Assembly (NCBI GenBank): GCA_028284955.1
Contig: JANQQS010000004.1
Coordinates: 1 to 52,487, forward strand
DNA from: Myxococcota bacterium
GTDB lineage: Bacteria; Myxococcota_A; Polyangia; Polyangiales; Houyiibacteriaceae
Direction of reading: 5' to 3'
Length of the DNA: 52,487 nucleotides
Within the stretch, counting starts at the first letter, position 1; each line of letters begins with the position of its first letter. The position numbers and the translations under genes were made by a program. This document shows, one piece after another, positions 33,554 through 41,194 of the stretch. The notes beneath the pieces were generated by a model. That model did not search any database. It was not told where the DNA came from and saw only the letters and a list, made by a program, of their open reading frames with translations.

Positions 33554-33595
33554 AAGATTGGGGACGGGGAAATTTCTTTCCCCGTCCCCAATCTT
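33554..33595. repeat. REP-like palindrome, copy 1
   Basis: Arms of 19 bp (33554-33572 and 33577-33595; core GATTGGGGACGGGGAAA) pair perfectly around a 4-nt spacer TTTC. The second copy at 33752-33793 has the same arms and spacer TCTC. Such GGGGACGGGG palindromes resemble REP/MITE elements of other genomes. Confidence 0.9.
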
Positions 33596-33751: not shown

Positions 33752-33793
33752 AAGATTGGGGACGGGGAAATCTCTTTCCCCGTCCCCAATCTT
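33752..33793. repeat. REP-like palindrome, copy 2
   Basis: Same 19-bp arms as copy 1 (33752-33770 and 33775-33793), spacer TCTC. It is flanked by an imperfect direct repeat beginning CATCAGAAC, which would fit insertion into or duplication of a short sequence. Confidence 0.9.
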
Positions 33794-33849
33794 TTCATCA
33801 GAACCGTCAAAGCTGCCCTGAGCGGGAAGCTCAGAGACACATCCCAGTA

Positions 33850-34033
33850 GGCCCGCAGAAGGCCTTGGGGTCTGTGGGGCGTCGCCCGTGCCAACCGGCC
33901 ATCAGGCCGAGACCCCGGTTGGCGCGGGCGCCGAGGGGGGCTTGCGCGGCGCAAGGAAGCCGTGGCCAGTCTTGAGACGGCGCCGCATCTGCAAGCCCCC
34001 CGTCCCCACAGGCCCCAAGGCCTTCTGCGGGCC
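33850..34033 (+). ncRNA. Candidate structured RNA or mobile hairpin element (three-way junction)
   Basis: A 30-bp outer stem (33850-33879 with 34004-34033) encloses hairpin 1 (16 bp, 33883-33898 with 33915-33930, 16-nt loop) and hairpin 2 (11 bp, 33935-33945 with 33991-34001, continued by 7 bp, 33946-33952 with 33980-33986, after a 4-nt bulge). Unpaired junction segments are 2-4 nt. Of 64 pairs only two are not Watson-Crick, and both are U-G wobbles when read from the plus strand. No family is recognised; transcription is not shown. It could also be a transposon-derived inverted repeat. Confidence 0.45.
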
Positions 34034-37270: not shown

Positions 37271-37305
37271 TGGGCATCGGTGGTAAGAAGTGGTAAGAAG
37301 TGCTT
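37271..37305 (+). promoter_or_regulatory. MraZ operator: four TGGNN-like boxes at 10-bp spacing
   Basis: TGGGC (37271), TGGTA (37281), TGGTA (37291) and TGCTT (37301) each begin exactly 10 bp apart, the geometry known for MraZ sites (TGGG boxes separated by 5 nt, between the mra promoter and mraZ). They lie directly after the -10 element and 43 bp before the mraZ start, so autoregulation is expected. The third base after TG(G) departs from the E. coli consensus. Confidence 0.6.
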
Positions 37306-37347
37306 CGATCGCGGCGTCGGGGTGATCACCAAGATGGGAAACGCGGG

Positions 37348-37800
37348 GTGTTTCGAGGGCGTTACGAACATGCGATCGATACGAAAGGGCGAACGTCGTT
37401 TCCGGCGCGCTTTCGTGAGGTTCTGAGCGCGCAGGGAGATTCCCGGCTCATCGTCACCACCGGTCTCGAGTCGTGCCTCGTGACCTACCCGATGAGCGAA
37501 TGGCTTGCGTTTGAAGAACGACTCTCGTCGCTGCCGCAGTTCGACCCCACCGTCGCCATGCTGCGACGCATCTACGTTTCGGGCGCCATCGAATGCGAGC
37601 TCGACAAGCTTGGGCGCGTGCTCATCCCGTCTGGTCTGCGCCAACACGCTGGCCTCAAGCGAGATCTTTTGTGGGCCGGAATGGGTCGTCATATCGAGCT
37701 TTGGTCCAAAGATCTATTTGAACAGATGCGTACTGAAGTGCTCGACGACCAAGGCCGGCGGATGGAGATGGCGGAGCGACTTGCGGAGCTCGGCTTATGA
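37348..37800 (+). CDS. mraZ: Transcriptional regulator MraZ
   Basis: A 150-aa MraZ, a ring-forming DNA-binding protein that represses the dcw operon. Two AbrB-like repeats are seen, each with the DxxGR signature: FRGRYEHAIDTKGRTSFPA near the N-terminus and ECELDKLGRVLIPSGLR near residue 85. GTG 37348 is chosen because the family begins MFRGRYEHA; the upstream frame would add 16 unconserved residues and overlap the operator. The stop TGA lies in the first copy of a 17-bp duplication shared with the rsmH start. Confidence 0.95.
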   Translation: MFRGRYEHAIDTKGRTSFPARFREVLSAQGDSRLIVTTGLESCLVTYPMSEWLAFEERLSSLPQFDPTVAMLRRIYVSGAIECELDKLGRVLIPSGLRQHAGLKRDLLWAGMGRHIELWSKDLFEQMRTEVLDDQGRRMEMAERLAELGL

Positions 37801-37821
37801 CAGGGCTCGGCTTATGACAGC
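37788..37821 (+). repeat. 17-bp tandem duplication at the mraZ/rsmH junction
   Basis: GCTCGGCTTATGACAG occurs at 37788-37803 and again at 37805-37820, a period of 17. Each copy contains ATGA; the first supplies the mraZ stop (37798-37800), the second the rsmH start (37814). The first ATG is out of frame with rsmH. Confidence 0.9.
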
Positions 37822-38764
37822 GTCGAACAGCGGAGAGGGCATGTTCCCCGCCCATCAGCCCGTGCTCGTCGAGGAAGCCATGGCGATGCTCAATCCTCGC
37901 GCGGAAGGGTGCTACGCCGACCTCACGCTCGGTCGCGGCGGCCACGCGGAGCAGTTGCTTGCCCAAAGCGCTCCCAGCGGCCGTCTTATCGCATTGGATC
38001 GCGACGCCGAAGCGCTGGATACGTCGCGGGCGCGCCTCGGTCGGTTCGGCGATCGAGCGACCTATGTGCACGCCGATTTTGCGTCCCTGCAGTCTGTTCT
38101 CGAAACGCTCGAGGTGTCAGCGGTCGATGGGTTGATTGCCGATTTGGGCGTCAGCTCGCCGCAGCTGGACCAGCCGGAGCGAGGTTTTTCGTTTCGTCAT
38201 GAAGGGCCTCTCGATATGCGGATGGATCCGTCAAAAGGGGAGACCGCGCTCGAACTGATCGGTCGATTGAGCGAACCACAACTCGCCGATATTCTTTTTT
38301 CGCTTGGCGAAGAGCGTCGATCGCGCCGTATCGCGAAATCGATTCGTCGTGCGTACGATGCGGGCGAGCTGCATACCACGCGCGATCTTCAGCGCGCAGT
38401 GCGGCGCGCGGTGGGTGGCTCCCGCCATCATCGGATCGACCCTTCGACCCGCACGTTTCAAGCGCTTCGCATCGCCGTCAACCAAGAGCTCGAGCAACTC
38501 AGCGCGCTGCTCGACATGCTCGCCGATGTACTCGCGGACGATGGTGTAGCTGCGATCATCTCCTTCCATTCTCTCGAGGACCGATTGGTGAAGCGGTTTT
38601 TCCGAGACAGCGAGCATCTTGTGCCGCTCACCAAGAAACCGATTGTCGCTTCCGAAACCGAGCGCCAACGAAACCCTCGCTCGCGGTCAGCGAAACTTCG
38701 CGCTTCACGCCGTCTTCGCCGCGATCGAGCGACCTCGGACCGAGGAGCGACCCATGAAAGGTAG
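37814..38764 (+). CDS. rsmH: 16S rRNA m4C1402 methyltransferase RsmH
   Basis: A 316-aa S-adenosylmethionine-dependent methyltransferase (RsmH/MraW) that N4-methylates C1402 of 16S rRNA. Motifs: HQPVLVEEAM, YADLTLGRGGHAEQLL (SAM-binding), GLIADLGVSSPQLD, GFSFRHEGPLDMRMD, TFQALRIAVNQEL and SFHSLEDRLVKRFF. ATG 37814 lies in the second copy of the 17-bp duplication and 13 bp after the mraZ stop. Its 3' end overlaps ftsL by 11 bp. Full family length. Confidence 0.96.
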   Translation: MTASNSGEGMFPAHQPVLVEEAMAMLNPRAEGCYADLTLGRGGHAEQLLAQSAPSGRLIALDRDAEALDTSRARLGRFGDRATYVHADFASLQSVLETLEVSAVDGLIADLGVSSPQLDQPERGFSFRHEGPLDMRMDPSKGETALELIGRLSEPQLADILFSLGEERRSRRIAKSIRRAYDAGELHTTRDLQRAVRRAVGGSRHHRIDPSTRTFQALRIAVNQELEQLSALLDMLADVLADDGVAAIISFHSLEDRLVKRFFRDSEHLVPLTKKPIVASETERQRNPRSRSAKLRASRRLRRDRATSDRGATHER

Positions 38765-39062
38765 AATCGTCGCTCTCTGGACGGCCGCGGTCATCGCCGC
38801 GGCAGCGGCGTTTATTGTTCATTTGGCGCTTCGGTTCGAAACCGTGCGGCTCGGCTATGAAGTCAGCGACGCGCGGAAAAAGCAGCGTGCTCTAATCGAG
38901 CAACGCCGCTTGCTTGCGATCGAAGCCGCGACGCTTCGTTTGGCGCCGCGGGTCGAAACGGTCGCGCGTCGGTCGCTGGGCATGGATGCGCCCAAGCCCA
39001 CGCAAGTTGTCCCCATCCGCCGACGTGGTCGCCGGCGGAGAATGGCGGGACGATTTCGATGA
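38754..39062 (+). CDS. ftsL: Cell division protein FtsL
   Basis: A 102-aa bitopic protein in the FtsL position. One transmembrane helix (about residues 6-25, VALWTAAVIAAAAAFIVHLA) is followed by a short coiled coil (SDARKKQRALIEQRRLLAIEAATLRL) described by its span, about 39-64, and the LxxxVExVARxSLGM segment typical of FtsL/DivIC-like proteins. The C-terminus is very Arg-rich. It overlaps rsmH by 11 bp and ftsI by 4 bp. Sequence conservation in FtsL is low, so context carries much weight. Confidence 0.88.
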   Translation: MKGRIVALWTAAVIAAAAAFIVHLALRFETVRLGYEVSDARKKQRALIEQRRLLAIEAATLRLAPRVETVARRSLGMDAPKPTQVVPIRRRGRRRRMAGRFR

Positions 39063-41194
39063 CCGATGACGCAAGTCGCCTTCGGTGGCGTCGCGCGCGC
39101 ATCGTGCTGCTTGGCGCGGTGCTCTTGGCCGGAGCGGCGCTGGTAGGAAAGCGTGCCCACGAGCTGCAGGTCAAAGAAGGGTCCACGCTCAAACAAATGG
39201 CGGAGGCCCAATATCTCCGCAACTTACGTTTGTCCCCCAAGCGAGGCACCATCTACGATCGACACGGCGCCGAGCTCGCCGTCAGCGTGGAGCTCGACAG
39301 CGTCTGGGCAGACCCCTTGGAGTTTCAAAAAGCGGGCATGCCCCCAGCGGCGGCGGCCGCTCAGCTTTCCCGCGTTCTCCGAATCGATGCCCAAAAAATA
39401 GCCCGTCGGCTTGCTTCGAAGCGGCGCTTCGCCTGGATCAAACGCCGGATCACGCCCACCAAAGCGGCCCGCGTGCGCCAACTAAAAGTGCCCGGAATCC
39501 ATATGGAGCGCGAAGCGCGACGATTTTATCCCAATCGCGCGCTGCTCGCCCACGTGCTCGGCTTTTCCGATATCGACGGCAAGGGCATCGAGGGGCTCGA
39601 ACTCGCGCTCGACGAACGCCTCCGAGGTTCTGAGCGCGTGGCGCCTGCCATTCGCGACCGTCGCGGGCAGATTGTGTTCTCTGAGCAACTGCTCGATGAT
39701 CGGTCCCAGCGCGGCGACGATCTGATCCTGACGATCGACAAAACGATTCAACATATCGCCGAACGTGAGCTTCAGCTTGCTGCCAAAACGTTCGAAGCGC
39801 GCGCCGGGCACGTTGTCGTGATGGACCCACGAACCGGGGAGTTGCTCGCGGTTGCGAACTATCCGAGTTACGACCCGAATCGGCCAGGGAAGTTTCCTGC
39901 CTCGCACCGACGCAACCGAGCCGTTACCGATCGTTTCGAGCCTGGCTCGACGGTTAAGCCGTTCACCGTCGCCGCCGCGCTGGGCGCGGGCACGATTCGA
40001 CCCACCCAGGTCATTGACTGCGAAGACGGCGCGCTCGAAGTGGCGGAATATACGATTCACGACTCGAAGCGCTTTGAAACGCTCACCCCGGCTCAAATCC
40101 TCGCATTTTCGAGCAATATCGGCACCGCGAAAATCGGCGCCACGTTGTCGCGCAAGGGTCTGTTTCGGGCATTTCGCCGATTTGGGTTCGGGGTTCCTAC
40201 GGGGCTGCCCGTTCCCGGAGAAACAGGAGGCATTCTTCGTCACTACAAGAAGTGGTACGACATGGATGCAGCCACCATTTCGTTCGGCCAGGGTGTCAGC
40301 GTTACCTCAGTGCAAATGGCGACGGCGATGAGCGTGATCGCCAACCGCGGTCGACTGATGCGCCCGATTCTCGTTCGTCGAGTGCAGCATAGCTCTGGCG
40401 AGATCGCCGACGAAACGTTGCCGCTGGTGCGAAGGCAGGTCGTGCCCGAGCGCACAGCTCGCTTGGTGGCGGACATGCTTACGGCGGTGACGGGGCCCGG
40501 AGGTACCGGGAGCGAGGCGAGCATCCCTGGGTTTTTGGTGGCGGGAAAAACGGGGACCGCGCAGAAAGCCGACTATGTGACCGGCGGATATGCGAGCGAC
40601 CGCTGGCTCGCGTCGTTCGTGGGGTTCGTTCCTGCGCGTTCGCCGCGCGTGGTGATTTCCGTGGTGCTCGACGAGCCTTTGATCGCGCACACCGGAGGCA
40701 CGGTGGCCGCGCCCGTTTTTCGCCGTGTCGGACGGGAGACGCTTCGCCATCTCGGAGTCCCCGGAGAAGATGAATCTGCCGGCACGATGCAGCTCGCGCG
40801 GTCGACCAAGCGCGCTGGTTCGACGGAACGTTCTAAGCGTGCAGGCGTCGTGGGCAAGCGCGTCACGCCGCCCGGTCGGCTCCCAAAGAATGCAGCCAGA
40901 GGAGAGGCCGCCCAGAAAGTGGTCGTTCCTGATTTTGCCGGGGCAAGTGCGCGTGTCGCCATTCATGAGGCGATCGAGCAGGGCCTTTGGCCGCGCCTCG
41001 CGGGTTCGGGCATCGTGGTGAATCAACATCCTGCTCCGGAGGCAGTCGTTCGGCGCGGGACCTCGATTCGGCTTTCGCTATCTCCGCGTCCGCGATCGAA
41101 GCAGGGCGCGCCATCTGCGCCCGTCGAACAACTCGCGCACACCGCAGCACCTTCGCAAACCCAGGGCGCCCGTGGACGCGGAGAGCTGCCATGA
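39059..41194 (+). CDS. ftsI: Division transpeptidase FtsI (PBP3) with C-terminal PASTA domain
   Basis: A 711-aa class B penicillin-binding protein that cross-links septal peptidoglycan. An N-terminal membrane helix (about 12-30) is followed by the dimerisation domain with RGTIYDRHGAELA, and the transpeptidase domain with the SxxK motif S297-K300 (PGSTVKPF), SSN (351-353) and KTGT (497-500). A linker rich in Lys/Arg leads to a PASTA domain (about 620-680, VVVPDFAGASARVAI), which is common in Gram-positive and deltaproteobacterial FtsI but absent from the E. coli protein. The ATG overlaps ftsL (ATGA) and the stop overlaps murE. Confidence 0.96.
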   Translation: MTDDASRLRWRRARIVLLGAVLLAGAALVGKRAHELQVKEGSTLKQMAEAQYLRNLRLSPKRGTIYDRHGAELAVSVELDSVWADPLEFQKAGMPPAAAAAQLSRVLRIDAQKIARRLASKRRFAWIKRRITPTKAARVRQLKVPGIHMEREARRFYPNRALLAHVLGFSDIDGKGIEGLELALDERLRGSERVAPAIRDRRGQIVFSEQLLDDRSQRGDDLILTIDKTIQHIAERELQLAAKTFEARAGHVVVMDPRTGELLAVANYPSYDPNRPGKFPASHRRNRAVTDRFEPGSTVKPFTVAAALGAGTIRPTQVIDCEDGALEVAEYTIHDSKRFETLTPAQILAFSSNIGTAKIGATLSRKGLFRAFRRFGFGVPTGLPVPGETGGILRHYKKWYDMDAATISFGQGVSVTSVQMATAMSVIANRGRLMRPILVRRVQHSSGEIADETLPLVRRQVVPERTARLVADMLTAVTGPGGTGSEASIPGFLVAGKTGTAQKADYVTGGYASDRWLASFVGFVPARSPRVVISVVLDEPLIAHTGGTVAAPVFRRVGRETLRHLGVPGEDESAGTMQLARSTKRAGSTERSKRAGVVGKRVTPPGRLPKNAARGEAAQKVVVPDFAGASARVAIHEAIEQGLWPRLAGSGIVVNQHPAPEAVVRRGTSIRLSLSPRPRSKQGAPSAPVEQLAHTAAPSQTQGARGRGELP

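What the first reader, a model, noticed from the sequence alone, without database searches (positions are those of the whole stretch)
33850..34033. 184-nt three-way-junction element, strand-polarised by G-U wobbles
A 30-bp closing stem and two long hairpins account for nearly all bases. Only two pairs deviate from Watson-Crick, and both are U-G wobbles if the plus strand is RNA but A-C mismatches if the minus strand is. That asymmetry would fit a functional plus-strand RNA, antisense in direction to both neighbouring genes. I know of no described RNA with this layout.
Basis: partly seen in the sequence, partly recalled or inferred. Interest (0 to 1): 0.75.

Follow-up and report, generated by a model that had tools for sequence, protein, structure and literature searches.

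The report
Giant mobile three-way-junction repeat family
The 184-base folded element is one copy of an apparently undescribed family of mobile non-coding repeats in Polyangiales (Myxococcota) that keeps its three-armed shape while its sequence drifts; it behaves like the small REP palindromes of other bacteria but is about five times larger.

Summary
The fold at 33850-34033 is real: 30-bp closing stem, two hairpins, RNA z = -12, 0 of 200 shuffles as good. It is not a single RNA locus. Stems covary strongly: 759 doubly changed pair cells against 219 in shuffles. Wobbles favour the plus strand: 255 G.T against 22 A.C in the closing stem over 117 copies, mostly from one genus. They carry an NNAG foot (GTAG here), sit mainly between convergent genes and abut stop codons, as REPs do, but are about five times larger, and no RAYT partner was found. 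In two genomes every detected copy lies beside an ISAs1-type transposase gene. Best reading: a giant REP-like mobile repeat whose folded plus strand is the recognised form.

The parts
33847..33850 (+). GTAG tag at the 5' foot of the closing stem; last G is the first base of P1
   Evidence: A precedes the first G of P1 in 80 of 86 clean copies
33850..33879 (+). P1 closing stem, 5' arm
   Evidence: sequence free, pairing kept
33880..33933 (+). P2 hairpin with the conserved U33889.G33924 wobble; 1x1 loop near its base
33935..34001 (+). P3 hairpin: CTTGCG/TGCAAG core and 4-nt ATCT bulge at 33987-33990
34004..34033 (+). P1 closing stem, 3' arm; ends 14 nt from the stop codon of the minus-strand HDOD-GGDEF gene

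Best explanation
This is one copy of a mobile, non-autonomous, intergenic repeat family of Polyangiales that works like an outsized REP. The plus strand, when single-stranded, folds into a three-way junction: a closing stem free in sequence but kept paired, a P2 hairpin with a fixed U.G/U-A wobble, and a P3 hairpin with a 4-nt bulge and conserved core. A mobility enzyme supplied in trans is proposed to recognise the junction plus the NNAG foot on that strand and to insert copies into gene-free gaps, mostly between convergent genes. Shown: fold, covariation, multiple copies, insertion polymorphism, context, foot motif. Supported statistically, mostly from one genus: plus-strand polarity. Inferred: a folded single strand is the recognised form, and ssDNA rather than RNA. 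Unknown: the enzyme.
For: 7 copies in G000 and 28/184 genomes of the order. Covariation: 90.9% cells paired against 70.0 shuffled, 759 doubly changed cells against 219, collapse when slid. P1 G.T 255 against A.C 22. Empty sites of 34, 12 and 19 bp in G001, G025, G032 where G029 has a ~490-bp insertion holding the element. NNAG foot, A in 80/86 against background 0.17. 44/72 between convergent genes; a stop codon faces the 3' end in 56, within 14 nt in 21. Head-to-head pairs in G047 and G069. REPs share the foot tag, convergent context within 20 bp of ORF ends, dimers and strand-specific ssDNA recognition (PMC3733652, PMC8266576).
Against: 184 nt against 20-40 bp for REPs. No partner transposase: PF01797 in 17/28 element-bearing and 69/156 other genomes (p 0.15); no element flanks the Y1 genes examined; G047 has at least 16 copies and no Y1 match. 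Polarity is weak outside genus g2, 19 against 5. G.T against A.C cannot separate ssDNA from RNA.
Confidence: 0.55

Rival explanations
1. A functional plus-strand structured RNA: an ncRNA carried by mobile DNA, including an ISAs1-family transposon, whose RNA fold is recognised by a protein.
For: Plus-strand wobble excess; family-wide U.G/U-A pair, never C-G; strong covariation in all helices; in G006 the core is more conserved (92-94%) than the transposase gene (75-88%).
Against: No transcript data; no promoter shown; no Rfam family fits; solo copies are mobile and intergenic like REPs.
Confidence: 0.27
2. A host-used 3' end or terminator element between convergent genes, kept where it happens to land.
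For: 44/72 copies between convergent genes and stop codons within 14 nt of the 3' end in 21; several lineages have a T5 run in the 3' arm of P1.
Against: The T run is missing in G000 and in other lineages; the wobble strand is opposite to the mRNA of the abutting gene; context is also what purifying selection on insertions would leave.
Confidence: 0.09
3. A MITE of an ISAs1-type DDE transposon, with P1 as its terminal inverted repeats and the fold a by-product.
For: All detected copies in G006 and G072 lie beside an ISAs1-type transposase gene.
Against: There the transposon's end repeat CCAATCAGGYCTG lies outside the element and P1 sequence is free; that end repeat is absent around G000 copies and G000 and g2 genomes show no such transposase; P2/P3 covariation and polarity are unexplained.
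Confidence: 0.07
4. A retron or group II intron-derived element.
For: Superficial layout; myxobacteria are known for retrons (own knowledge).
Against: No reverse transcriptase match (PF00078) in G000, G017, G020, G022, G006 or G032, which have 3 to at least 16 copies; no element near the six RT loci examined.
Confidence: 0.02

Closest known systems
REP / REPIN / BIME elements (GTAG-tagged repetitive extragenic palindromes) and their RAYT/TnpA_REP transposases (PMC3733652, PMC2817692, PMC8266576)
   Same: GTAG-like tag at the 5' foot, palindromic fold, many copies, intergenic and mainly convergent context close to ORF ends, inverted pairs, strand asymmetry
   Different: 184 nt with a three-way junction instead of a 20-40 bp hairpin; no RAYT flanked by the element found; tag is NNAG rather than strict GTAG outside G000
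TIRYT-associated TIR repeats with GGGGWSAS motif (PMC3733652)
   Same: Repeats in the same intergenic region of the window (33554-33595, 33752-33793) and around the g2 Y1 gene look like these
   Different: Unrelated in sequence to the three-way-junction element
Transposon-associated structured RNAs (IS200/IS605 omega RNA, IS110 bridge RNA; own knowledge)
   Same: Structured non-coding element beside a transposase gene in G006 and G072
   Different: Partner is an ISAs1-family DDE transposase (NF033564); most copies are solo; no guide function shown; no Rfam match

Membership tests
REP (GTAG superfamily) | Small palindrome of 20-40 bp | tested here: not met
   184 nt, 25-37 bp closing stem plus two hairpins
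REP (GTAG superfamily) | GTAG tag at the 5' foot | tested here: inconclusive
   GTAG in the G000 copies; GGAG 36, TGAG 11, CGAG 7, GTAG 6 among 86 clean copies, A before the first G in 80
REP (GTAG superfamily) | RAYT gene flanked by the repeat | tested here: not met
   No model hit flanks the Y1 genes of eight genomes; nearest is over 4 kb away; no co-occurrence, p 0.15
REP (GTAG superfamily) | Extragenic, multicopy, near ORF 3' ends | tested here: met
REP (GTAG superfamily) | Inverted dimers | tested here: met
   Head-to-head pairs in G047 and G069; not seen for G000 copies
REP (GTAG superfamily) | Folded ssDNA bound and cut strand-specifically by TnpA_REP | not testable with these tools
   needs biochemistry
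Rfam RNA families | Match at the curated score | tested here: not met
Retron / group II intron | Reverse transcriptase in genomes with active copies | tested here: not met
ISAs1-family transposon component | ISAs1 transposase and terminal inverted repeats around the element | tested here: inconclusive
   Transposase NF033564 beside the detected elements of G006 and G072 (two are fragments); right ends CCAATCAGGYCTG at four copies, a left end at one only. Absent around G000 copies

The most novel reading that the evidence does not exclude
The three-way junction is the RNA (or folded-DNA) component of an ISAs1-type DDE transposition system, and the solo copies in this and other genomes are its independently mobile offspring: a structured nucleic-acid cofactor for a DDE transposase family not known to use one.
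Probability: 0.1. Interest if true: 0.88.

Novelty: new variant of a known kind. Interest (0 to 1): 0.6.

Why it matters
It extends REP-like repeats from tiny hairpins to a three-way junction with strongly covarying arms and strand polarity. It gives a searchable covariance model for a repeat that, in the assemblies examined, often lies at contig ends of Polyangiales MAGs, and poses a testable question: which enzyme moves it, and does it read the folded strand as DNA or RNA. The ISAs1 association offers a concrete candidate system.

Tried and rejected
Retron / group II origin: rejected, no RT in several multicopy genomes. RAYT partner: searched, not supported. Rfam families: none. Viral carriage: 17 pattern hits in viral contigs, none a model match. 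ISAs1 relatives in plasmids only below 60% identity, upstream regions not inspected; none in viral contigs. Target-site duplications: none noticed by eye in the flanks; no statistical scan was made, and composite or nested units blur the ends. Literature: no paper found linking myxobacteria to REPs or ISAs1 to such a structured RNA.

Full report
Observation. The sequence at 33850-34033 folds exactly as described: a 30-bp P1, a P2 hairpin and a P3 hairpin with an ATCT bulge. As RNA the plus strand has z = -12.2 with no shuffle as good; the minus strand and both DNA strands also fold strongly, so the fold alone says nothing about strand or molecule. The two wobbles are U33871.G34012 and U33889.G33924.

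It is a family. Homology search finds further copies in the genome, some partial and two broken at contig ends. The closing stem of L004/L008 is largely a different sequence from L001; in L004, which is complete, it is fully paired. A covariance model from 11 copies finds 7 copies in G000 (E 2e-25 to 8e-12), 28 of 184 genomes of the order, several at the 16-per-genome scoring cap, 29 of 318 in the class and 12 of 379 sampled across the phylum. Apart from one weak hit elsewhere in the class (G210), hits stay in this order. Database titles for matching contigs include many Myxococcales, Polyangiaceae and Deltaproteobacteria MAGs beside chance pattern hits; that the order is Polyangiales is my reading of these.

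The fold is under selection. On 91 aligned copies 90.9% of pair cells form standard pairs against 70.0% shuffled; 37 of 46 pairs show changes on both sides, 759 doubly changed cells against 219, and sliding the 3' strand by 1-3 columns destroys the signal. Arm-to-arm copying could produce some of this in P1.

Strand polarity. In an alignment that rewards only Watson-Crick pairs, and so is blind to strand, P1 holds 166 G.T and 20 A.C; on 117 distinct copies 255 and 22, with 79 copies favouring G.T and 3 A.C. Most of this comes from genus g2; among copies assigned to other genera it is 19 against 5 (p 0.007), and G000's own P1 stems give 1 against 1. The P2 pair at columns 26-79 is U.G in 75 copies, U-A in 16, never C-G. 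Copies are related, so p-values overstate independence. The plus strand is the likely folding strand; G.T is also tolerated in DNA, so this does not prove RNA.

Mobility and context. Between the same two convergent genes G029 carries a ~490-bp insertion with the element, while G001, G025 and G032 have 34, 12 and 19 bp there; other relatives carry other insertions. In G017 the element is embedded in a longer composite repeat, and in G029 one copy looks nested in another. Of 72 copies with genes called on both sides, 44 lie between convergent genes and 5 between divergent ones; the 3' end faces a stop codon in 56, within 14 nt in 21 (my own GC-frame gene caller). The first base of P1 is preceded by A in 80 of 86 clean copies, giving GGAG, TGAG, CGAG, GTAG and similar feet. 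In G047 and G069 copies form head-to-head pairs.

Relation to REPs. These are REP habits (PMC3733652, PMC2817692, PMC8266576). But size fails the REP definition and no RAYT partner emerges. It works like a REP but is not filed as one.

ISAs1 link. In G006 all three detected copies lie beside an ISAs1-family transposase gene (NF033564), the core 184-189 nt from the transposase start and divergent; a terminal repeat CCAATCAGGTCTG lies beyond the element in two copies and its left counterpart is seen in one. In G072, a different family, both detected copies have the same arrangement beside transposase fragments related at about 45% identity to those of G006. In G006 the core (92-94%) is more conserved than the transposase gene (75-88%). 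A related transposase fragment in G042 has no model hit beside it, and G000 has no such transposase, so the element may be captured cargo rather than an integral part.

Conclusion. Selection on the fold, multiple copies and mobility are well supported; plus-strand polarity is supported less evenly; the recognised molecule and the enzyme are open. I favour REP-like ssDNA recognition (0.55) over an RNA function (0.27).

Noticed in passing
window 33554-33595 and 33752-33793: Two copies of a separate palindrome GATTGGGGACGGGGAAA..TTTCCCCGTCCCCAATC, repeated elsewhere in the genome; resembles the GGGGWSAS TIR repeats of TIRYT transposases (PMC3733652).
   Followed up: partly
L006 (G000:C200) and L008 (G000:C39): Element copies broken in the P2 loop by a sequence starting CTAGGAGRCTGGTGTCA at a contig end; looks like an insertion sequence with CTAG target duplication.
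   Followed up: partly
L142, L143, L144, L146 (Y1 loci of g2 genomes): A single Y1 transposase gene at a conserved place in g2 genomes; in L289 it is flanked by GGGGACAGG / CCTGTCCCC repeats, not by the three-way-junction element.
   Followed up: partly
L277 (G030), gap at the site orthologous to L257: A different inverted-repeat insertion (GGGACACGCTCACCCCCCAAAACC...) of about 180 bp occupies the same convergent gap.
   Followed up: no
L052/L053 (G017) and L257 (G029): Elements at the same orthologous intergenic site appear to lie in opposite orientation in the two species.
   Followed up: no
window 37300-41194: Cell-division (dcw-like) cluster by my reading of the ORFs: MraZ, MraW/RsmH, FtsL-like, FtsI-like; not tested against a family library.
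   Followed up: no
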